Shown piece by piece: positions 56,027-64,000 of a stretch of 64,000 nucleotides of DNA. The notes beneath the pieces were generated by a model. It was not told the origin of the DNA, did not search any database, and saw nothing but the letters and a program-made list of their open reading frames with translations. This DNA is from Fuscovulum blasticum DSM 2131 (GTDB lineage Bacteria > Pseudomonadota > Alphaproteobacteria > Rhodobacterales > Rhodobacteraceae), in contig NZ_PZKE01000009.1 in assembly GCF_003034965.1 (NCBI RefSeq), positions 1 to 64,000 on the forward strand. The letters are read 5' to 3'. Made by a program: the position numbers and the translations under genes. Position 1 is the stretch's first letter; the number at the start of each line of letters is the position of its first letter.

Positions 56027-56043
56027 GACCGGCGATGCCGGTC
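56027..56043. terminator. Short hairpin between convergent nuoN and modA
   Basis: GACCGGC, loop GAT, GCCGGTC: a perfect seven-base-pair stem that reaches into the modA stop codon. Probable bidirectional terminator though without a T-run. Confidence 0.5.
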
Positions 56044-56812
56044 AGTTCAGAACCTTGAAGCCCTGATCGGCGAAATGCCTGTCCGCCGCTTCGGTGGACA
56101 GCGCCTCGAAAAACGCCTTGTCGGCGGCATCGGCCGCGCCAGTCAGCAGCGCCGCGGGGTAAAGAATGGTCTTGTGGCTGTTGTCCGGGAAGGTGCCGAC
56201 CACCGTCACATTGTCATCGGCCACCGCGTCCGAGGCATAGACGATGCCATAGGGCGCCTCGCCCGCCGAAACCAGCGCCAGCGTCGCCCGCACGTTTTCG
56301 GCCTGCGCGACCAGAGGTTCGACCGCCGGCCAGATCCCCAGGCTTTCCAGCGAAGCCTTGCCATATTGCCCGGCGGGCACCGAATCGACCATGGCCATGG
56401 CCAGCTTGCCATCGCCCAGCAAGGCCTTCAGATCGAAGCCGGGCTTGATCTCGACCGGGGCCGCGTCCTTGCCATGGGCGATCAGCACCAGCGTATTGCC
56501 CAGCAGGTCTTCGCGGGTGCCGGGCACCACCAGACCGGCCTTCTCGACCTCATCCATCCAGTTGACGGCGGCCGAAATGAAGATGTCGGCCGGGGCGCCT
56601 TCAAGGATCTGCTTGGCCAGCGCGTTCGACCCGGCATAGCTGATGGTCACCGTATTGCCGGTGGCGGTCTGGAAATCGGCGGCCACCGCATCCAGTGCGT
56701 TCTTCAGCGAGGCGGCGGCGAACACCACCACCTCTTCGGCGGCAGCAACCTGCGGCAGCACCAGGCTGGCCGCAATGAGCGAGGCAAACAGGGGACGGCG
56801 GGGGAAGGACAT
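56042..56812 (-). CDS. modA: Molybdate ABC transporter binding protein ModA
   Basis: The 256-residue product has a signal peptide ending near residue 25 (VAAAEEVVVFAAASLKNAL), and the molybdate-binding serines are in AAASLKNAL and SYAGSNALAKQI, with ADIFISAAVNWMDEV following. It captures molybdate or tungstate in the periplasm. No modB or modC is in the window, so permease and ATPase genes must be elsewhere. CAAGGAG before the ATG supports the start. Likely controlled by the Mo-box-like palindrome 15 bases upstream. Confidence 0.93.
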   Translation of the reverse strand: MSFPRRPLFASLIAASLVLPQVAAAEEVVVFAAASLKNALDAVAADFQTATGNTVTISYAGSNALAKQILEGAPADIFISAAVNWMDEVEKAGLVVPGTREDLLGNTLVLIAHGKDAAPVEIKPGFDLKALLGDGKLAMAMVDSVPAGQYGKASLESLGIWPAVEPLVAQAENVRATLALVSAGEAPYGIVYASDAVADDNVTVVGTFPDNSHKTILYPAALLTGAADAADKAFFEALSTEAADRHFADQGFKVLN

Positions 56813-56959: not shown

Positions 56960-57322
56960 ATGACCGACCTGCCCGATGATGCGCGCCTGTTCCTTCGCCT
57001 GTTCTTCGGCGATTTCCGGTTTGGTCCGGGCAAGGCCGCCATGCTGGAAGGCATCCGCGACACCGGCTCGATCTCGGCCGCCGGCCGCCGGATGGAGATG
57101 AGCTACAAGCGCGCCTGGATGCTGGTCGAAGAGATGAACGCCGCCTTCGCCACCCCGCTGGTCGAAAGCAGCCGTGGCGGCAGCGGCGGCGGCGGCGCGC
57201 GTCTGTCAGAGACCGGCCATCAGGTGCTGGCCCATTTCCGCGCCATCGAGGCCGCAGCCGCCACGGCCGCCACCCCCGACATGCAGGCCCTTGCCGCCCT
57301 GATGCGCCCACGGGACCACTGA
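56960..57322 (+). CDS. modE: ModE-type molybdenum regulator, DNA-binding domain only
   Basis: The 120-residue product is the N-terminal winged-helix domain of ModE/MopA: FRFGPGKAAMLEGIRDTGSI, SAAGRRMEMSYKRAWMLVEE and the Gly-rich wing. The two Mop domains that bind molybdate are missing, although the gene ends normally. The start at 56960 (MTDLPDD) fits the family; the ATG 36 bases upstream gives an odd extension. It is divergent from modA with the Mo-box between. How it senses molybdate is unclear. Confidence 0.88.
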   Translation: MTDLPDDARLFLRLFFGDFRFGPGKAAMLEGIRDTGSISAAGRRMEMSYKRAWMLVEEMNAAFATPLVESSRGGSGGGGARLSETGHQVLAHFRAIEAAAATAATPDMQALAALMRPRDH

Positions 57323-57388
57323 CGCAAACCGGCAGCACACGGGATGCGGCTCAGCCACCATGGGCCAAGGACACAGGAGCGCGGCCTT

Positions 57389-58378
57389 TCACGCCGATCT
57401 GACACGCCTTGCATCGTTGCCGGAGTCTGCCGCCCCCAGCCCCAACACCTTTCGCAGCGTGCCCGAGGCGATGGCGGACTGCGCGTCGGGGGACAGACCG
57501 GCGCCGTTCAGTGCGGCCTGCAGGCGGGGGCGGATCGGGCCCTGGCTGACGATGGGCCAGTCGCTGCCCGCAAGCACGCGGTCCGGCCCCAGCGCCGCCG
57601 CCAGTGCGGCAATCACCACCGGGTCAAACCCCATGGTGTCGGCAAAGACCTGACGGCGCAGCACCTTGGCCGCCGGGCTGCGCCCGTCTTCGGGCTGGTC
57701 ATAAGCCGCGCCCAGCAGGATGCCGGCAATCGCCAGATTGGTGACAACCACCTGCAACCCGGGAAGGCGGTCGAAGACCCCTTCGGCGATCAGGCTGGCC
57801 AGCGCCGCACTGTTAACCGTGCCGCGGGCCAGCAGCGTGCCCAGCCGGCCGAAGGGGGCAAGCTGTTCGGTCAGACCGGGCGGATTGACCGGGTGCAGGA
57901 AGACCGGAACGCCCAACCCGGCGGCGGCTTCCAGCACAGGGCGGGCTTCGGGCGCGTTGATCAGGCGGTCGCCGCGCCCGCTGTCAAGGAATACCCCGTG
58001 CAGGCCCAGTTCCTGCACGGCGCGGGTCAGTTCGCGCGCCGATGCCTCGCCACCGAAGGTGTCAACGGCGGCCAGCCCGAAAAGCTGCCCCGGCCGTTCG
58101 GCCACCAGCGCGGCCAGGGCATCGTTCAGCCGGGCCGGCAGGTCGGCGGGAAACCCGGCCGGATGCGGGGCGATCAGGGCCAGCGGCACGTTCACCACCC
58201 GCCCGGCCAGATCGCCGCTGTCGATGTCTTCCACCAGCGCACGGGGGTCGGTGATCTTGCCGATGACCGATTGCCAATGCGCCCGGTTCGCGGCGCTGCC
58301 CGTGACCAGATGGCCCAGATCGAACCCCGGCGGGATGTAGTGGCTGTGAAAGTCGATGATCGACAGGGGCGCAGGCAT
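57389..58378 (-). CDS. Amidohydrolase (COG2159, Amidohydro_2) family protein
   Basis: The 329-residue product shows metal-binding HxH in DFHSHYIPPG, a later His in FLHPVNPPG and the metal Asp in AGSDWP. The family contains decarboxylases and hydrolases of aromatic or small acids (for example ACMSD and gamma-resorcylate decarboxylase). It is the last gene of the sulfonate-type ABC locus, 31 bases behind the ATPase, so it may act on the carbon skeleton left after desulfonation. Start at 58378 with AAGGAA upstream. Confidence 0.86.
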   Translation of the reverse strand: MPAPLSIIDFHSHYIPPGFDLGHLVTGSAANRAHWQSVIGKITDPRALVEDIDSGDLAGRVVNVPLALIAPHPAGFPADLPARLNDALAALVAERPGQLFGLAAVDTFGGEASARELTRAVQELGLHGVFLDSGRGDRLINAPEARPVLEAAAGLGVPVFLHPVNPPGLTEQLAPFGRLGTLLARGTVNSAALASLIAEGVFDRLPGLQVVVTNLAIAGILLGAAYDQPEDGRSPAAKVLRRQVFADTMGFDPVVIAALAAALGPDRVLAGSDWPIVSQGPIRPRLQAALNGAGLSPDAQSAIASGTLRKVLGLGAADSGNDARRVRSA

Positions 58379-58409
58379 GGAGACGGGTTCCTTCTGAGGG
58401 GCCGGCCGT

Positions 58410-59150
58410 TCAGGCGGCATGGGCACCGGGGCCGAACAGCAGATCAAGGATGCGGGCCTTTTCGGCCTGAAAGGCGGCCGAGGTGCGGGCGCGCGGCTGC
58501 GGCAGGTCGATCTTCAGATCGGCCCGGATCTCCCCGGGCGGGCCCGCCAGAACCAGAATCCGGTCAGACAGGGCCAGCGCCTCGTCGATGTCATGGGTGA
58601 TGATGACGACATTCGGCACCTCCTGCCCAACCATCTCCAGCAGGTGATCCTGCATCCGCAGCCGGGTCAGCGGGTCCAGCGCGGCGAAGGGTTCGTCCAT
58701 CAGCAGAAGCCGGGGCCGGCGCACCAGCGCGCGGGCGATGCCCACCCGCTGCGCCATGCCGCCCGACAACTGGCGCGGCAGGGCATTGCCGAAGGCGGGC
58801 AACTGCACCTGCGCCAGCGCCGCCTGAACCGCGGCGGCGCGGTCGCTGGCGGGCTGATCCCAGATGCCAAGCTCGATATTGGCGCGCACGGTGGCCCAGG
58901 GCAGCAGGCGGGGTTCCTGGAACACCACGGCCACATCCGGCCGCGCGCCGGTGATCGGTGTGCCGTCCAGCCGCACCGTGCCGCCGGTCAGCGGATCAAG
59001 CCCGGCCAGAACCCGCAGCAGAGTGGACTTGCCGCAGCCCGAGGGGCCGACGACGCCCAGCACCCGGTCCTCTCGCCCCAGCGAAAAGGTCACGGGACCA
59101 AGCGCGCGGAAGGCGCCGTAGGTCTTGACCAGTGACTGCACCTCAAGCAT
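58410..59150 (-). CDS. ABC transporter ATP-binding protein (SsuB/TauB type)
   Basis: The 246-residue product has complete motifs: Walker [10 protein letters not shown], signature [15 protein letters not shown], Walker [17 protein letters not shown] and ITHDIDEAL. The [19 protein letters not shown] stretch is typical of the nitrate/sulfonate/taurine group. It partners the permease encoded one base overlap upstream (TGATG). Confidence 0.93.
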
Positions 59151-60013
59151 CAGCTTGCCCTTTCCAGCGTGTCCTGCCAGCGCAGCGCCCAGGCGGCGAT
59201 GGCGGCAAGGATCATGTCGGTGACCTTGCCGCAGGCGGCGAAGATCAACATGCAGGCCATGACCAGCGCCGGACGGCCGGTCATCTGCCCGTCCAGCAAC
59301 AGAAAGCCGATCCCGCGCGAGGCGCCCATCAGTTCCGCCGCGACGACCACGATCCAGGCCACGCCCATGGATTGCCGCAGCCCCACGAAATATGACGGCA
59401 GGCTGGCCGGCAGCAGGATGCGCCCCATGAGCCGCAGCCCGGTCAGCCGGTTCACCCGGCCCACCTCGATCAGCTTGCGGTCCACGCCGGCAACGCCGGC
59501 CATGGTGTTCAGATAGACCGGAAAGAAGGTGACCAGCGCGATCAGCGCCACTTTCGACGCCTCACCGATGCCGAACCACAGGATGAACATCGGAATCCAC
59601 GCCAGCCCCGGAATGGTGCGCAGCGCATGGATGGTGGGGTCAATCAGGGTGCGGAAGGTCAGCACATAGCCGGCCAGAACCCCCAGCACGGTGGCGGTGC
59701 CGGCCCCGATGGCAAAGCCCGCCATCACCCGGCCCAGCGAGGGCGCAAGCTGGTGGCGCAGTTCGCCGCTGCGCAGCAGATCCACCAGCCAGACCACCAC
59801 CTCAGCGGGATGGGGCAGCAGATAGGCGGGAACCCGGCCGGAAATGCTGACCAGATACCAGACCAGCAGGATCGCGGCGGGAAAGACCAGCGCAAGCGCC
59901 AGCCGGCGCAGACGCGCGGCCCAGGCCGGCCAGGGCTTGCCTGTCCGGGCATGGGCATCGGGCGGGGGTCGACGGGCAACGGCGGGGCGGTCGGGCAGGC
60001 TGGCGTCAGTCAT
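59150..60013 (-). CDS. ABC transporter permease (SsuC type)
   Basis: The 287-residue product has about six helices, a proline-rich cytoplasmic N-terminus and the EAA loop (VDRKLIEVGRVNRLTGLRLM). AYLLPHPAEVVVWLVDLL is the standard opening of nitrate/sulfonate/taurine permeases. The ATG at 60013 abuts the stop of the DszB-like gene. Confidence 0.92.
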   Translation of the reverse strand: MTDASLPDRPAVARRPPPDAHARTGKPWPAWAARLRRLALALVFPAAILLVWYLVSISGRVPAYLLPHPAEVVVWLVDLLRSGELRHQLAPSLGRVMAGFAIGAGTATVLGVLAGYVLTFRTLIDPTIHALRTIPGLAWIPMFILWFGIGEASKVALIALVTFFPVYLNTMAGVAGVDRKLIEVGRVNRLTGLRLMGRILLPASLPSYFVGLRQSMGVAWIVVVAAELMGASRGIGFLLLDGQMTGRPALVMACMLIFAACGKVTDMILAAIAAWALRWQDTLERAS

Positions 60014-60014
60014 G

Positions 60015-61079
60015 TCATTCCGCCGCCGCAATGGCCGGCACCGGCGTTTCCGCCAGCAGCGCCTGCGCGCGGACCAGCGGCCCGAAGTCGATGAACCGGG
60101 TGAAATCGACCGGCCGGTCGATGAAGCCGTGGTCCACCAGCAGCCGGTTCTGGCTTTCCAGCCGCGCGATCAGCGTGTCGTCCAGCGAAAGGCCAAGCTG
60201 TTCATGCACGCGGGGCGAGAAGGCCCGGTCAACCAGATCTTCGGGCAGGCCGGATTCGATGGCGATCAGCCGTTTGGCCTGCCGCTCTTGCGCCCTTGCC
60301 CAGGTGGCGGCGCGCAGGGTCTGGGCGACCACACGGTCCACCAGATCGGGGCGGCGGTCCAGCAGATCGCCGGTGACCGTCAGTGTCAGAGGCGCGTCGT
60401 TGTTCACCCAGCGGGCGGTGTCCTGACTGTCGAAGATCGCCCGCGCTCCGGTGAAGCCTTGCGTGATGGCGGCGATGGCGCCTTGCGAAAAGATCGCGTC
60501 CACCTCGCCGCGGATCAGCGCCTCGGCCTCTTCGCGCTGATGGCCCAGCATGAAATCAGCGCGCCAGAGGCTGTCTTCCGCGCGCCGGGCATCCTGCGCG
60601 CTGTCCACATAGGCGCGGGCGATGCGGACCTCGGTTGGAACGGTGTCCTGCAAGCGCAGGCCGTTGGCGGCCAGCACATCAGAGAAGCCGCGCAAGACGG
60701 TGGTGCGCCAGAAATCCACCGGGTCCGCCAGCCGCCGCGGGATCGAGATCCGCTTGCCGCGAAGGTCAGCCACACTGCGAATGTCGCTGTCAGGGCGGAC
60801 AAGGATGACGCGCAGGCTTTCGTTGAAAGACAGCCCGATCAGCCGCACATCCCGCCCGGCGGCGCGGGAAAACAGCGGGGGTGTATTGCCGCCCTGCCGG
60901 AAGAAGTTCGGCTGGGTCTGCTGGAAATGTGATTGCCGGGCGCTGCGGTCGGGTGTGGTGGCCAGCGACCGGAAGGCGATGCCTTCGGTTTGCAGATCCT
61001 GCGCGATCCAGCCATTCAGCACGGCCAGGCTGAAGGCGGTGGGCACCGGGCAGCGGGTATACCAGAAGGTGTTGGTCAT
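60015..61079 (-). CDS. DszB-like protein, probable sulfinate desulfinase
   Basis: The 354-residue product looks at first like a sulfonate-binding protein but has no signal peptide. Its N-terminus FWYTRCPVPTAF aligns with YSNCPVPNAL of DszB, the 2'-hydroxybiphenyl-2-sulfinate desulfinase. Cys10, His51 (SHFQQTQP) and Arg61 (FFRQGGNTPPL) fall where DszB has its catalytic Cys27, His60 and Arg70, with the same ten-residue step from His to Arg and the following GG-x-x-PPL. I therefore call it a cytoplasmic desulfinase-like enzyme that would release sulfite from an imported sulfinate. Substrate unknown. It sits between binding protein and permease of a sulfur-compound importer. Confidence 0.75.
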   Translation of the reverse strand: MTNTFWYTRCPVPTAFSLAVLNGWIAQDLQTEGIAFRSLATTPDRSARQSHFQQTQPNFFRQGGNTPPLFSRAAGRDVRLIGLSFNESLRVILVRPDSDIRSVADLRGKRISIPRRLADPVDFWRTTVLRGFSDVLAANGLRLQDTVPTEVRIARAYVDSAQDARRAEDSLWRADFMLGHQREEAEALIRGEVDAIFSQGAIAAITQGFTGARAIFDSQDTARWVNNDAPLTLTVTGDLLDRRPDLVDRVVAQTLRAATWARAQERQAKRLIAIESGLPEDLVDRAFSPRVHEQLGLSLDDTLIARLESQNRLLVDHGFIDRPVDFTRFIDFGPLVRAQALLAETPVPAIAAAE

Positions 61080-61112
61080 CGGGGGCTATCCTGTTCGGGC
61101 AAGACTGCGAGG

Positions 61113-61128
61113 GGGGCGCGCGCGCCCC
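61113..61128. repeat. GC palindrome between binding-protein and DszB-like genes
   Basis: GGGGCGCGCGCGCCCC is a perfect 16-base palindrome in the 84-base gap after the binding-protein stop. It resembles the intercistronic hairpins after the other two binding-protein genes in this window. Confidence 0.5.
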
Positions 61129-61163
61129 GGACCTGAAGGCCCGGGGGCACATGGGGCGGCGGA

Positions 61164-62156
61164 TCAGCCCGCCGCCAGAACCTGCGTGATGTAGCTGCCC
61201 GCCAGCAGGCTGTTCGTGGCGGCTGCAAGGTCGGTTCCGGCCGGGATCGACCCGGTGTCGCGCAGCGCCTCGCCCGCGGCGATCAGGTTGGCCACGTCGG
61301 CATCGGTGATAGCGAACTGATCCAGCACGTTGCGGTTGAACGACCGTTCGGCCACCGGCTGTTCCAGCTTGCCCGCCGCCGCGTAAAGCGCCAGCGCCTC
61401 GGCCGGGTTGGCCTTGATGTAATCGACCGCGCGGACATTGGCCTTCAGGACGGCCGTCACCAGATCGGGGTTTTCGGTGGCAAAGTCCTTGTGGACGTTC
61501 AGCACGCCGCCGGTGATCAGCGACAGGTCGCGGTAGATCGGCACCGAGCCGCGGGTGATCTCGGTGATGGCGAAATCGGGGTCCAGCGCCGCCCAGGCAT
61601 CGACCTGCCCGCTTTCCAGCGCCAGCCGTCCTTCGGGGTGTTGCAGGGGCACCACCTCGACCTCGGTGGCGGGGATGCCTTCCTTCGCCAGTGCGCGCAG
61701 CAGGAAAAGATAGGGTTCGGTGGCGCGGGTGGCGGCCACCTTCTTGCCGCGCAGATCCTGCAGTGTCTTGATGCCCGAGTCGGGCAGCGCCAGAAGCGTG
61801 GTGCTTTCCCCGCGCGACAGCCACGAGATCACCTGGTTCGGCGCGCCATTGGCATGGCCCAGCAGGGCCGCCGATCCGGCAGAGGCGCCAAAGTCGATGG
61901 CACCGCTGCGCAGGAATTCCAGCGTCTGGTTCGACCCGCGCGACAGGGTCCATTCCACGGCAATGCCCTTGGCGCCGAACTCTTCCTCAAGCCAGCCCTT
62001 TTCCTTGATCACCAGCGTAGACGGCGTGGCGTAGGAAAAGCCCAGCCGAACGGCGCTTGCGGCCGCCCGCGCCTGTCTGACAAGCGCCGGTGCCGTCAGG
62101 GCCCCGATGCCGGCCAGCGTGGCCAGGGTGAAATTGCGTCGTGTGATCGTGGTCAT
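61164..62156 (-). CDS. Sulfonate-type ABC substrate-binding protein (SsuA-like)
   Basis: The 330-residue product starts MTTITRRNFTLATLAGIGAL, a twin-arginine-type signal peptide, and continues VRLGFSYATPSTLVIKEKGW and LEFLRSGAIDFGASAGSAAL, the pattern of the NMT1/SsuA family for nitrate, taurine and sulfonates. It is the periplasmic receptor for the SsuC/SsuB pair downstream. Start at 62156 with CAGGTG upstream; an upstream extension is not conserved. An AT-rich patch at 62260-62295 probably contains its promoter. Confidence 0.9.
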   Translation of the reverse strand: MTTITRRNFTLATLAGIGALTAPALVRQARAAASAVRLGFSYATPSTLVIKEKGWLEEEFGAKGIAVEWTLSRGSNQTLEFLRSGAIDFGASAGSAALLGHANGAPNQVISWLSRGESTTLLALPDSGIKTLQDLRGKKVAATRATEPYLFLLRALAKEGIPATEVEVVPLQHPEGRLALESGQVDAWAALDPDFAITEITRGSVPIYRDLSLITGGVLNVHKDFATENPDLVTAVLKANVRAVDYIKANPAEALALYAAAGKLEQPVAERSFNRNVLDQFAITDADVANLIAAGEALRDTGSIPAGTDLAAATNSLLAGSYITQVLAAG

Positions 62157-62259
62157 GCTGCGCACCTGCTGGTTGATTTTCGGGCCACCCGGCCCTGAAA
62201 TGTTGCCCGGCCTTCGGTGGCCGCGCGGAACAGGCCCCAAGGGTTGCACCGCGCAGACA

Positions 62260-62295
62260 TGACGTAAATATCTACCAGATAAGTCGAGTAATTTT
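62260..62295 (-). promoter_or_regulatory. AT-rich promoter patch for the sulfonate-type locus
   Basis: An isolated AT-rich stretch 105-140 bases before the binding-protein start contains the dyad ATCT-ACC-AGAT (62270-62280). I take it as the promoter/operator area, but I cannot place definite -35 and -10 boxes or name the regulator. Confidence 0.4.
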
Positions 62296-62398
62296 GGAAA
62301 ACCCGCCCTGCCAGCCCCCCTTCCGGCGAAGCGGCGCTTCCCCGGAACGGCCTGTCCGCGACAAGACCGTTCCTCGCCCTGTGATTGTTGCCGGGGGC

Positions 62399-62430
62399 GG
62401 CAGGCGCGCGGATGATTCGCGCCGCCTGCC
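62399..62430 (-). terminator. Hairpin after the TauC-like permease gene
   Basis: GGCAGGCGCGCG and CGCGCCGCCTGCC pair over 12 base pairs with one bulged base around a seven-base loop, starting seven bases after the permease stop. No T-run follows, so it may only be a 3' stabilising hairpin. Confidence 0.45.
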
Positions 62431-62436
62431 GGTGGG

Positions 62437-63663
62437 TCAGGCCTTGCCGCGCCAGGGAACCAGCCGCCGTTCGGCGAACCGCATCAGGATGTCGATGCCG
62501 TAGCCGATGATCCCGATCAGCAGGATGCCCATCACCACGATGTCGGTAAGCTGGAACTTCGAGGCCACCAGGATCATCATCCCGGCCCCCTTTTCCGCCG
62601 CCACCAGTTCGGCCGCCACCACGGTGCCCCAGCAGACGCCCAGCGCAACGCGCAGGCCGGTAAAGATGTCGGGCAGCGAGTTCGGCACGATGACATGCCA
62701 CAGAACCTGTCGCGGCGAGGCGCCAAGACTGTAGGCGGCATGGACCTTGGACAGGCGGATGCCGGTCACGCCGGTGCGGGCGGCGATCACCATGATCCAC
62801 AGCGCAGCCAGGAACAGCAGCACGATCTTGCCGCTTTCCCAGATGCCGAACCAGATGATGATCAGCGGAATCAGCGCAAGCGGCGGCACAGGCCGCATGA
62901 ATTCGACGATCGGGTCGAACCAGCCGCGGAACCAGCCCGACAGGCCCATTGCATAGCCCAGCGGCACGCCGACCAGCGTGCCCAGCACCAGCCCCGCCAG
63001 CACCCGCCACAGCGAGAAGCCGACATGTTCCCACAGCGAATTGTTCTGGTAGCCGTTCCGCGCAATCTCGACAAAGCGCGCGGCCACGGCTTCGGGCGGG
63101 GGCAGCCAGATCGGCTCCATCTGCCAGCCGGCATCAGGGGTGAAGCTGACCGACCCCTTCGAGGTGAGGACGGCGCGGCCATGCGCCACGCGCACCGCCT
63201 GGTCTGCGGTCACGGGCTGGCCGTCGATGGCGGTGATGCGCGCCCCTTCCCCGTCATTGGCGGCGGGGCGGACCAAGGCGCTGCGCCAGGCCGGGGTGAT
63301 TTCGGCATCGTCCACCGCAATGCCGCTGCCACCCGTGGCAGCCGGCGCCTGGGGCTTTTCGCCCGGGCGGTGGACACGCACGGTCACGGTGCCCTGCCCG
63401 GTGCCGCCCTTGCCATCCTCGACCGTGTAGGTGAAGGCGGTGTCGCCCAGGAACGGCCCCGGCACATGCAGCGGCACCAGCCGCGACCCGGTGAAGGCGC
63501 CCCAGATCAGGAACAGCACCCCCACCGACAGGACCGAGGCCACCCGGCTGGGCCGGATCGCGCTGGTGTCGCCAAAGGCGGCGCGGGGTGTCTTGCGCCA
63601 AAGCAGCCGGGTCAGCGCCCAGGCCACCACGAACAGCGCCACATAGGCCAGAAGGACGGTCAT
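62437..63663 (-). CDS. TauC-type ABC permease with inserted Ig-like periplasmic domain
   Basis: The 408-residue product is far longer than usual TauC/SsuC permeases (about 260-280). Residues 3-20 and 43-58 are two membrane helices. About residues 70-180 then contain sequence typical of tandem Ig/cadherin-like adhesin repeats: [20 protein letters not shown] (77-96) and [17 protein letters not shown] with [11 protein letters not shown] (143-180). After this comes the normal permease core from [20 protein letters not shown] onward, with its EAA loop and five helices. The insertion would lie in the periplasm, facing the binding protein. It overlaps the ATPase gene by four bases (ATGA). Confidence 0.85.
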
Positions 63664-64000
63664 GCCGCCACCTCGGACCGGCCCATGATCTCTTCCTCCA
63701 TGCCCCAGATCAGCGACAGGATCTCATCCCGGCGGGCATGAAAATTGGGGCGCGACTTCACGGCGCGCAGATCGGCATCGACCCCGGCTTCGGCAAAGGG
63801 CAGGTGATATTCGCGGAAGATGCGGCCCGGACGCGGCGCCATGACGATCAGCCGTTCGCCCAAGAGCAGCGCCTCTTCGACGGAATGGGTGATCAGGATC
63901 ACCGTCTTGCCGGTTTCCTTCCACAGCTTCAGCACAAGGCCCTGCATCTTTTCCCGCGTCAGCGCATCCAGCGCGCCCAGCGGTTCATCCATCAGCACCA
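63660..64000 (-). CDS. TauB-type ABC ATP-binding protein, N-terminus outside window
   Basis: The frame enters from the right edge and ends at 63660. Visible are Walker B and D-loop [20 protein letters not shown], the H-loop [15 protein letters not shown] and a C-terminal tail ending [13 protein letters not shown]. The tail and SVEEA block are typical of taurine/sulfonate/nitrate ATPases. It overlaps the TauC-like permease by four bases and forms a separate importer from the SsuBC-like pair downstream. Confidence 0.9.

What the first reader, a model, noticed from the sequence alone, without database searches (positions are those of the whole stretch)
60015..61079. DszB-like desulfinase built into a sulfonate-type ABC operon
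Seen: no signal peptide; Cys10 in YTRCPVPTAF, His51 and Arg61 with RQGGNTPPL match the order and local spacing of DszB's Cys27, His60 and Arg70. It lies between the binding protein and the permease. Known: DszB releases sulfite from 2'-hydroxybiphenyl-2-sulfinate and is itself related to binding proteins. Inference: the locus imports an organic sulfinate (or a sulfonate reduced inside) and removes sulfur at once; the amidohydrolase at the end would treat the remaining carbon skeleton. Automatic pipelines would call this an ABC binding protein.
Basis: partly seen in the sequence, partly recalled or inferred. Interest (0 to 1): 0.75.

Follow-up and report, generated by a model that had tools for sequence, protein, structure and literature searches.

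The report
Misannotated sulfur-releasing enzyme in importer operon
A gene that automatic annotation would take for a nutrient-binding protein is most likely an enzyme inside the cell that strips sulfur from an imported organic compound, one of a wider family of such enzymes found beside different kinds of importers.

Summary
Window 60015-61079 (minus) encodes 354 aa whose best solved relative by sequence and fold is the desulfinase DszB (E 6e-19; Z 34.0, next SsuA 25.1). DszB's Cys27, His60, Arg70 and Gly73 fall on Cys10, His51, Arg61 and Gly64. In 50 family members (query included) RxGG is invariant, Cys kept in 42, His in 47. An in-frame stop three codons upstream leaves no room for a leader. 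The order binding protein - DszB-like - permease - ATPase - amidohydrolase recurs in Arsenicitalea (49-74% identity). The binding protein and this enzyme are the two poorest in Cys+Met of 48 called window ORFs, a sulfur-sparing sign. Relatives sit beside four other importer classes, often with flavin monooxygenases. Neither genome with the five-gene operon gave a TauD or an SsuD/SfnG/DszA-type enzyme. Best reading: a cytosolic sulfinate desulfinase releasing sulfite from an imported compound, in a sulfur-scavenging island. Substrate and activity are unproven. Precedents: DszB-like genes beside ssu-type genes in Rhodococcus IGTS8 and Gordonia.

The parts
60015..61079 (-). DszB-like desulfinase, 354 aa; Cys10, His51, Arg61, Gly64 at DszB's Cys27, His60, Arg70, Gly73; Cys10 is its only Cys
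   Evidence: phmmer to 2de2 E 6.4e-19; AF2 pLDDT 86.3; VIA-align Z 34.0 to 2de3; motif survey; composition
61164..62156 (-). SsuA-type substrate-binding protein with an RR-containing, leader-like N-terminus (Tat-like by eye); no Cys, no Met but the start
   Evidence: TIGR01728 203.3 bits, cut-off 163.5; N-terminus; 64% identical to the Arsenicitalea gene
59150..60013 (-). ABC permease, SsuC-like; ATG one base after the desulfinase stop
   Evidence: PF00528 E 4e-20; SsuC model 165 bits, below its cut-off of 347; 74% identical to the Arsenicitalea gene over 251 aa; sequence
58410..59150 (-). ABC ATPase, SsuB/NtrD-like (curated NCBIfam cut-offs not reached by the matches shown)
   Evidence: PF00005 E 3e-31; 68% identical to the Arsenicitalea gene
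57389..58447 (-). Amidohydrolase-2 superfamily enzyme closing the operon (true start may lie downstream of 58447)
   Evidence: PF04909 E 8e-24; nearest solved relatives 5-carboxyvanillate and aminocarboxymuconate-semialdehyde decarboxylases; 49% identical to the Arsenicitalea gene
62437..63663 (-). TauC-like permease with an Ig-like (Big_9) stretch, upstream neighbour, probably another transcription unit
   Evidence: TauC model 230.5 bits, cut-off 342; 280-bp gap to the binding protein gene
63660..63998 (-). C-terminal part of a TauB-like ATPase; the gene continues beyond the window end
   Evidence: TauB model E 4e-31 on the fragment; full ORF L024:6660-7466

Best explanation
The protein is a cytosolic, cofactor-free enzyme of the DszB (2'-hydroxybiphenyl-2-sulfinate desulfinase) family. 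The SsuA-type binding protein and the permease/ATPase bring in an organosulfur anion, most likely a sulfinate. The desulfinase closes over it; Arg61 and Gly64 hold the SO2 group, Cys10 gives its proton to the carbon and His51 (with Thr8) stabilises the leaving state, so that SO2/sulfite is released. Sulfite then enters cysteine and methionine synthesis, and the amidohydrolase processes the remaining carbon compound. Shown here: family membership by sequence and fold, conserved active site, no leader peptide, operon order conserved in a second genome, sulfur-sparing composition, no TauD and no SsuD/SfnG/DszA-type monooxygenase found in either genome, sulfur-metabolism neighbours. Taken from the DszB literature: the chemistry. 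Inferred: substrate, sulfite release by this protein, the role of the amidohydrolase.
For: DszB homology over query 3-327 and best fold match DszB, Z 34.0 over 323 residues against 25.1 for the best binding protein. RxGG in 50 of 50 family members, Cys in 42, His in 47, Thr/Ser at position 8 in 49; the operon's own SsuA lacks these residues. PMC6100217 (passages): C27S inactive, RXGG highly conserved in DszB homologs. The low-confidence loop 157-171 of the model falls on DszB 183-197 in the alignment, overlapping the 187-204 loop that folds over substrate. Sulfur sparing: of 48 called window ORFs of 150 aa or more, the binding protein and this enzyme have the lowest Cys+Met content (0.28 and 0.56 per 100 aa, median 3.57) and the amidohydrolase is fourth; in 26 of the 33 members with Cys at position 10 among 41 it is the only Cys. 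PMC8557817 (passages) counts one Cys and no Met in DszB as part of sulfur sparing. The binding proteins form one branch apart from DszB plus the family, 99/98. Relatives lie beside four importer classes other than SsuABC. Relatives' neighbours include SfnG-, SsuD- and SfnB-like monooxygenases. Sulfur genes beyond the window. In Rhodococcus IGTS8 a chromosomal 'SsuA/DszB' protein listed between SsuB and SsuD is more abundant in the DBT culture.
Against: Identity to DszB is only about 26%. No activity, expression or substrate evidence for this gene. Thr replaces Ser25. No sulfinate-producing monooxygenase in the operon, so the source of the sulfinate is unexplained. The DszB mechanism as computed applies to aromatic sulfinates; an alkyl sulfinate would need other chemistry. 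Distances in the pocket were not measured. DszB and one distant relative have long branches and their place in the tree is unsure. Eight of 50 members have Ser for Cys, so not every family member is a DszB-like catalyst. No promoter-like site was found and no shared upstream motif of note.
Confidence: 0.72

Rival explanations
1. The enzyme acts directly on a sulfonate: a DszB relative that has moved from sulfinate to aryl-sulfonate protodesulfonation, giving sulfonate sulfur without oxygen or reduced flavin.
For: The binding protein is of the sulfonate family; in both genomes with the five-gene operon no TauD and no SsuD-type protein among the luciferase-like monooxygenases found, so imported sulfonates would need another route. 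A Gordonia paper says in passing that such a desulfinase hydrolyses sulfinate or sulfonate (PMC3868597, passage).
Against: The characterised reaction of DszB is on a sulfinate; the C-S bond of a sulfonate should be harder to cleave this way (general chemistry, recalled). The own genome has Xsc, a route for taurine-derived sulfoacetaldehyde, so sulfonate use does not need this enzyme in every case.
Confidence: 0.1
2. A cytosolic non-enzymatic binder: a former binding protein that now senses or buffers sulfonates or sulfinates for regulation.
For: The fold is also that of SsuA (Z 25.1), and 8 of 50 family members have lost the catalytic Cys.
Against: The query keeps the DszB active site, and its only Cys is the catalytic one; no regulator lies among the five operon genes; many relatives sit in clusters with monooxygenases.
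Confidence: 0.08
3. An exported substrate-binding protein, as Pfam annotation implies, serving as a second receptor of the transporter.
For: PF09084 passes its cut-off (34.5 against 20.5 bits); N-terminal hydropathy does not exclude export.
Against: In-frame TAG as the third codon before the ATG and a fold that starts at residue 3-4; TIGR01728 far below its cut-off (81.7 against 163.5); a proper binding protein is encoded next to it; relatives accompany other importer types.
Confidence: 0.04
4. A binding-protein-fold enzyme with other chemistry, for instance a decarboxylase as in 4,5-dihydroxyphthalate decarboxylase, working with the decarboxylase-like amidohydrolase.
For: 4,5-dihydroxyphthalate decarboxylase shares the fold (9jp7, Z 14.3).
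Against: Z is far below DszB's 34.0; DszB's Cys/His/RxGG set is conserved; sulfur context and sulfur-sparing composition.
Confidence: 0.06

Closest known systems
DszB, 2'-hydroxybiphenyl-2-sulfinate desulfinase (Rhodococcus; PDB 2DE2/2DE3)
   Same: Homology over nearly the whole length, same fold, Cys/His/Arg/Gly active site and RXGG motif, no leader in the query, uncertain loop where DszB's substrate-closing loop lies, one Cys only
   Different: About 26% identity; Ser25 is Thr8; sits in an ABC importer operon with an amidohydrolase instead of with DszA and DszC; substrate unknown
DszB-like genes in ssu-type clusters of actinobacteria: IGTS8_peg4802 'SsuA/DszB' (PMC8557817) and Gordonia terrae bdsA (PMC3868597)
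   Same: A desulfinase-like gene listed beside sulfonate-type ABC genes; both induced or more abundant when an organosulfur compound replaces sulfate (passages)
   Different: Those clusters also hold monooxygenases; no amidohydrolase is mentioned in the passages seen; I did not compare sequences
SsuABC / TauABC sulfonate and taurine importers
   Same: Binding protein, permease and ATPase of the operon are of this kind; the desulfinase shares the binding-protein fold
   Different: The sulfur-releasing step would be a cofactor-free DszB relative, not SsuD or TauD
SfnG / SfnB and DszA / DszC sulfone pathways
   Same: In Rhizobium acidisoli a relative lies between an SfnG-like and an SfnB-like monooxygenase, the order of dszA-dszB-dszC (order as in the IGTS8 table)
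   Different: No such monooxygenase in the window's operon, and no SfnG-, SsuD- or NtaA/DszA-type one found in the genome

Membership tests
DszB desulfinase family | Sequence homology to DszB over most of the length, better than to binding proteins | tested here: met
   2de2 E 6.4e-19 over 3-327; best binding protein 3e4r 8.9e-6 over 63-154
DszB desulfinase family | DszB fold, closer than the binding proteins compared | tested here: met
   Z 34.0 against 25.1 (1000 chains compared)
DszB desulfinase family | Catalytic Cys27, His60, Arg70 and RXGG (residues from PMC6100217 and PMC12168087) | tested here: met
   C10, H51, R61-Q-G-G64
DszB desulfinase family | Ser25 hydroxyl bound to His60 | tested here: inconclusive
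   Thr8 in the query: hydroxyl kept, residue changed
DszB desulfinase family | Active-site residues meet in the pocket | tested here: inconclusive
   Overlay on 2de3 spans residues 3-341, but no coordinates were available to measure distances
DszB desulfinase family | Cytosolic, no leader | tested here: met
   In-frame TAG as third codon before the ATG; fold begins at residue 3-4; hydropathy alone not decisive
DszB desulfinase family | Sulfite release from a sulfinate | not testable with these tools
   needs an assay
4S-pathway dszABC operon | DszA- and DszC-type monooxygenases beside dszB | tested here: not met
   None in the operon or the island; own genome: one luciferase-like monooxygenase, TIGR03858, four sub-cut-off matches to SfnB
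SsuA aliphatic sulfonate-binding proteins | Curated family score (TIGR01728) | tested here: not met
   81.7 bits against a cut-off of 163.5; the wider Pfam NMT1 is passed at 34.5 against 20.5
SsuA aliphatic sulfonate-binding proteins | Exported, with signal peptide | tested here: not met
   No room for a leader

The most novel reading that the evidence does not exclude
A cofactor-free desulfonase: in genomes where no TauD and no SsuD-type enzyme was found, the operon imports an aryl sulfonate and this DszB relative removes sulfite from it directly by Cys-proton transfer, giving an oxygen- and flavin-independent way to use sulfonate sulfur, with the amidohydrolase decarboxylating or opening the remaining ring acid.
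Probability: 0.08. Interest if true: 0.85.

Novelty: new variant of a known kind. Interest (0 to 1): 0.48.

Why it matters
DszB is studied mainly as the slow step of fuel desulfurization. The evidence here points to a wide, patchy family across Proteobacteria and Actinobacteria, tied to importers of several kinds, with a sulfur-sparing make-up, and mostly named as binding proteins where named at all. If true, organic sulfinates (or sulfonates) have dedicated import and desulfination operons that annotation hides, and the family is a source of new DszB-like catalysts. One simple sulfite-release assay would decide it.

Tried and rejected
Single-sequence AlphaFold gave a useless model (pLDDT 35.4); an 11-sequence alignment gave 86.3. 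N-terminal hydropathy as a test of export did not discriminate. Viral contigs: 60 stretches matched a pattern, none a relative. No shared upstream motif of note between the window operon and Arsenicitalea (best 14 of 18, GC-rich); no sigma-70-like site in 57300-62500 (0 found, 0.4 expected). Two papers listed for 'sulfinate desulfinase' concern cysteine sulfinate desulfinase, a different enzyme (PMC12316311, PMC10179380; passages). I rejected a 4S pathway in this genome because no DszA-, SfnG- or SsuD-type monooxygenase appeared; this rests on those enzymes being found by PF00296, which I recall and did not test. The tree does not resolve where DszB joins the family.

Prior art. A draft of this report said that no paper on DszB-like genes beside ABC operons had turned up; a second look at listed papers showed two. 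PMC8557817 lists IGTS8_peg4802 'Dibenzothiophene desulfurization enzyme B, SsuA/DszB' between SsuB and SsuD entries, and PMC3868597 lists the Gordonia desulfinase GTC6_01605 with sulfonate-type ABC genes at neighbouring numbers, all up on benzothiophene. PMC4839641 reports DszB-like peptides in the proteobacterium Chelatococcus (passages). Interest was lowered from 0.52 to 0.48 for this. Searches (listings capped; others showed 20 of 95, 20 of 67 and 10 of 21) showed no paper whose title or abstract start concerns this operon or the family in Proteobacteria outside Chelatococcus; that covers one open-access library only, and most listed papers were not opened. Of all papers cited I saw passages, none whole.

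Full report
Observation. The ORF at 60015-61079 on the minus strand reads 354 aa from an ATG. Against solved structures (7 distinct sequences at E up to 1) its only match over most of its length is DszB: 2de2 E 6.4e-19 and the C27S form 2de3 2e-17, query 3-327 to DszB 20-349; binding proteins follow at 8.9e-6 or weaker over parts. Cys10 falls on Cys27, His51 on His60, Arg61 on Arg70 and Gly64 on Gly73. Pfam sees NMT1 on residues 70-114 (34.5 bits, cut-off 20.5), and the SsuA model is far under its cut-off (81.7 of 163.5), which is how a pipeline would come to call it a binding protein.

Location of the protein. The third codon upstream of the ATG is an in-frame TAG, and the first strand of the predicted fold is residues 4-9, so there is no room for a leader. 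The neighbouring binding protein starts with an RR-containing, leader-like stretch. A hydropathy index did not separate them (query 1.68, neighbour 1.82) and is not used as support.

Structure. A model from the query and 10 homologs from loci L005-L010 has mean pLDDT 86.3 and pTM 0.87. Foldseek ranks the three DszB chains first, then SsuA. VIA-align gives 2de3_A Z 34.0, rmsd 2.9, 323 residues; 2de2 Z 33.0; then SsuA 3uif 25.1 and, below further SsuA entries, TauA 21.0. The uncertain loop of the model, 157-171, falls on DszB 183-197 by the alignment; DszB 187-204 is a loop that becomes helical over bound substrate (PMC6100217, passages). I had no coordinates and could not measure distances in the pocket.

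Active site in the family. From all loci in hand, tblastn hits at E up to 1e-15 that span 250 or more query residues gave 50 distinct proteins, the query included (shorter hits and copies were dropped): position 10 Cys 42, Ser 8; position 51 His 47, Asn, Ile and Asp one each; Arg61, Gly63 and Gly64 50 of 50; position 8 Thr 48, Ser 1, Ala 1. The set leans on a few clades and is not independent. The operon's own SsuA has none of these residues. In DszB, C27S is inactive, H60Q loses about 17-fold, and RXGG is described as highly conserved in homologs. In a tree of 52 rows the 10 binding proteins form one branch (99/98) apart from DszB and 41 family members; DszB and L013 have long branches and their place is unsure, and two rows carried read-through letters past their stop.

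Sulfur sparing. The query has one Cys, Cys10, and one Met besides the start; the binding protein has no Cys and no other Met. Among 48 ORFs of 150 aa or more called in the window by a simple base-composition caller of mine, these two have the lowest Cys+Met content, 0.28 and 0.56 per 100 aa (median 3.57), and the amidohydrolase is fourth, 1.42; third is the ORF at 56042-56812, outside the operon. Permease and ATPase do not show it (10 and 4 Met). In 26 of 33 members with Cys at position 10 that Cys is the only one (41 proteins looked at). PMC8557817 treats DszB's single Cys and lack of Met as part of sulfur sparing (passages). This fits proteins made under sulfur shortage and marks the kept Cys as functional.

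Distribution. The family is rare and patchy. Counts include the window's own genome: genus 3 of 13, family 4 of 198 at E up to 1e-20, one of them at 24% identity, class 3 of 385, phylum 7 of 398; the samples overlap in some genomes. 87 of 72,556 plasmid records hold a relative, 47 of them Sinorhizobium.

Operon. Binding protein, desulfinase, permease, ATPase and amidohydrolase follow each other on the minus strand; the permease ATG comes one base after the desulfinase stop (read). Arsenicitalea aurantiaca has the same five genes in the same order: 64%, 61%, 74%, 68% and 49% identity. This is the strongest evidence that desulfinase, importer and amidohydrolase work together; it is one further genome. 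The amidohydrolase's nearest solved relatives are 5-carboxyvanillate, aminocarboxymuconate-semialdehyde and gamma-resorcylate decarboxylases, which would suit an acid left after desulfination; that is inference.

Importer swapping. Relatives sit beside other importer types: Peripla_BP_4 with BPD_transp_2 in two Conexibacter loci; SBP_bac_3 in G040 with amino-acid-type permeases in G040 and G037, and amino-acid-type genes in Variovorax; SBP_bac_8 in Rhizobium ACO-34A; Dpp/Opp-type in rhizobia and others; SsuABC-type in Streptomyces SAT1, Sphingobium, Methylovorus and others. The enzyme stays while the importer class changes, which fits an enzyme and not a receptor matched to one permease. In 15 of the 27 loci of 9-20 kb looked at (L005-L010, L014-L027, L048-L054) a luciferase-like monooxygenase lies near, by annotation, Pfam or BLAST against a small reference set; in the other 12, the window's own and Arsenicitalea among them, I saw none. 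The loci are not independent. Of eight neighbours scanned with NCBIfam, LLM proteins resemble SfnG (L023, L006), SsuD (L019, L014) or NtaA/DmoA (L017; the only one over its cut-off), one acyl-CoA-dehydrogenase-like protein resembles SfnB (L023), and two (L018, L025) matched nothing at E up to 1e-30. In Rhizobium acidisoli the order is LLM - DszB-like - SfnB-like.

What feeds the enzyme here. The window's genome (99.99% complete) has no TauD match, one luciferase-like monooxygenase, of family TIGR03858, and only sub-cut-off SfnB matches, as have 9 of 14 control genomes; it has Xsc. Arsenicitalea's genome (completeness not told) has no TauD match and two luciferase-like monooxygenases, TIGR03858 and MsnO8. 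So neither genome showed the usual partners. Either the sulfinate is imported as such, or another oxygenase makes it, or the enzyme takes a sulfonate. I favour import of a sulfinate.

Island. Beyond the window end, same strand, lie TauB- and TauA-like genes (TauA-like below the curated cut-offs), an EpsC/CysE-type serine acetyltransferase (NF041874 just over its cut-off, TIGR01172 below), an O-acetylhomoserine/serine sulfhydrylase (TIGR01326; no Cys, one Met), two CMD/alkylhydroperoxidase-like proteins (TIGR04029 over, TIGR04030 below its cut-off), the family 2A encapsulin cargo cysteine desulfurase (NF041166) and the shell (NF041162). That encapsulin rises on sulfur starvation in Synechococcus, though its knock-out had no growth phenotype there (PMC8049743, passages). 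This supports a sulfur-scavenging role for the region.

Precedents. Rhodococcus IGTS8 has a chromosomal protein named 'SsuA/DszB' (peg4802) listed between SsuB and SsuD among proteins up in the dibenzothiophene culture (PMC8557817). Gordonia terrae's desulfinase gene GTC6_01605 has sulfonate-type ABC genes at neighbouring numbers, and all rise on benzothiophene (PMC3868597). So a desulfinase-like gene beside ssu-type genes is not new in itself; the operon without monooxygenases and with an amidohydrolase, and the breadth of the family, I have not seen in print within the searches named. The same Gordonia paper names a Sinorhizobium that desulfurizes benzothiophene; S. meliloti pSymA holds two relatives, a lead I did not follow.

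Verdict. The protein is a DszB-family enzyme in a conserved sulfonate-type ABC operon, outside a 4S operon. The chemistry and substrate remain to be shown.

Noticed in passing
L008, L009, L010, L021, L035, L036, L037, L038: Eight of 50 family members have Ser at the catalytic Cys position, the natural counterpart of the inactive C27S mutant; all eight lie within a few kb of a copy that keeps Cys, and four of the eight have no Cys at all. They come from three groups, and some loci were fetched around such a pair, so the pairing is partly a matter of sampling. A paired active and inactive desulfinase may form a complex or a substrate-holding partner.
   Followed up: partly
L024:13636-16396 (window frame 70636-73396, beyond the window): Family 2A encapsulin shell and its cargo cysteine desulfurase at the head of the same-strand sulfur island.
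   Followed up: partly
62437-63663: TauC-like permease carries an extra region before the transport domain, with a Big_9/cadherin-like match at residues 71-97 and a weak PDZ-like match.
   Followed up: no
L015, L017, L021, L050, L052: These loci hold two or three divergent DszB-like copies within 20 kb; L017, L021 and L052 also a Fis-family regulator and TonB receptors.
   Followed up: no
L024:9700-10482: A 260-aa ORF between the sulfhydrylase and serine acetyltransferase genes with no Pfam match at E 1e-5 and no NCBIfam match at 1e-10.
   Followed up: no
56042-56812: A ModA-like (by eye) binding protein gene, third lowest in Cys+Met of 48 called window ORFs.
   Followed up: no
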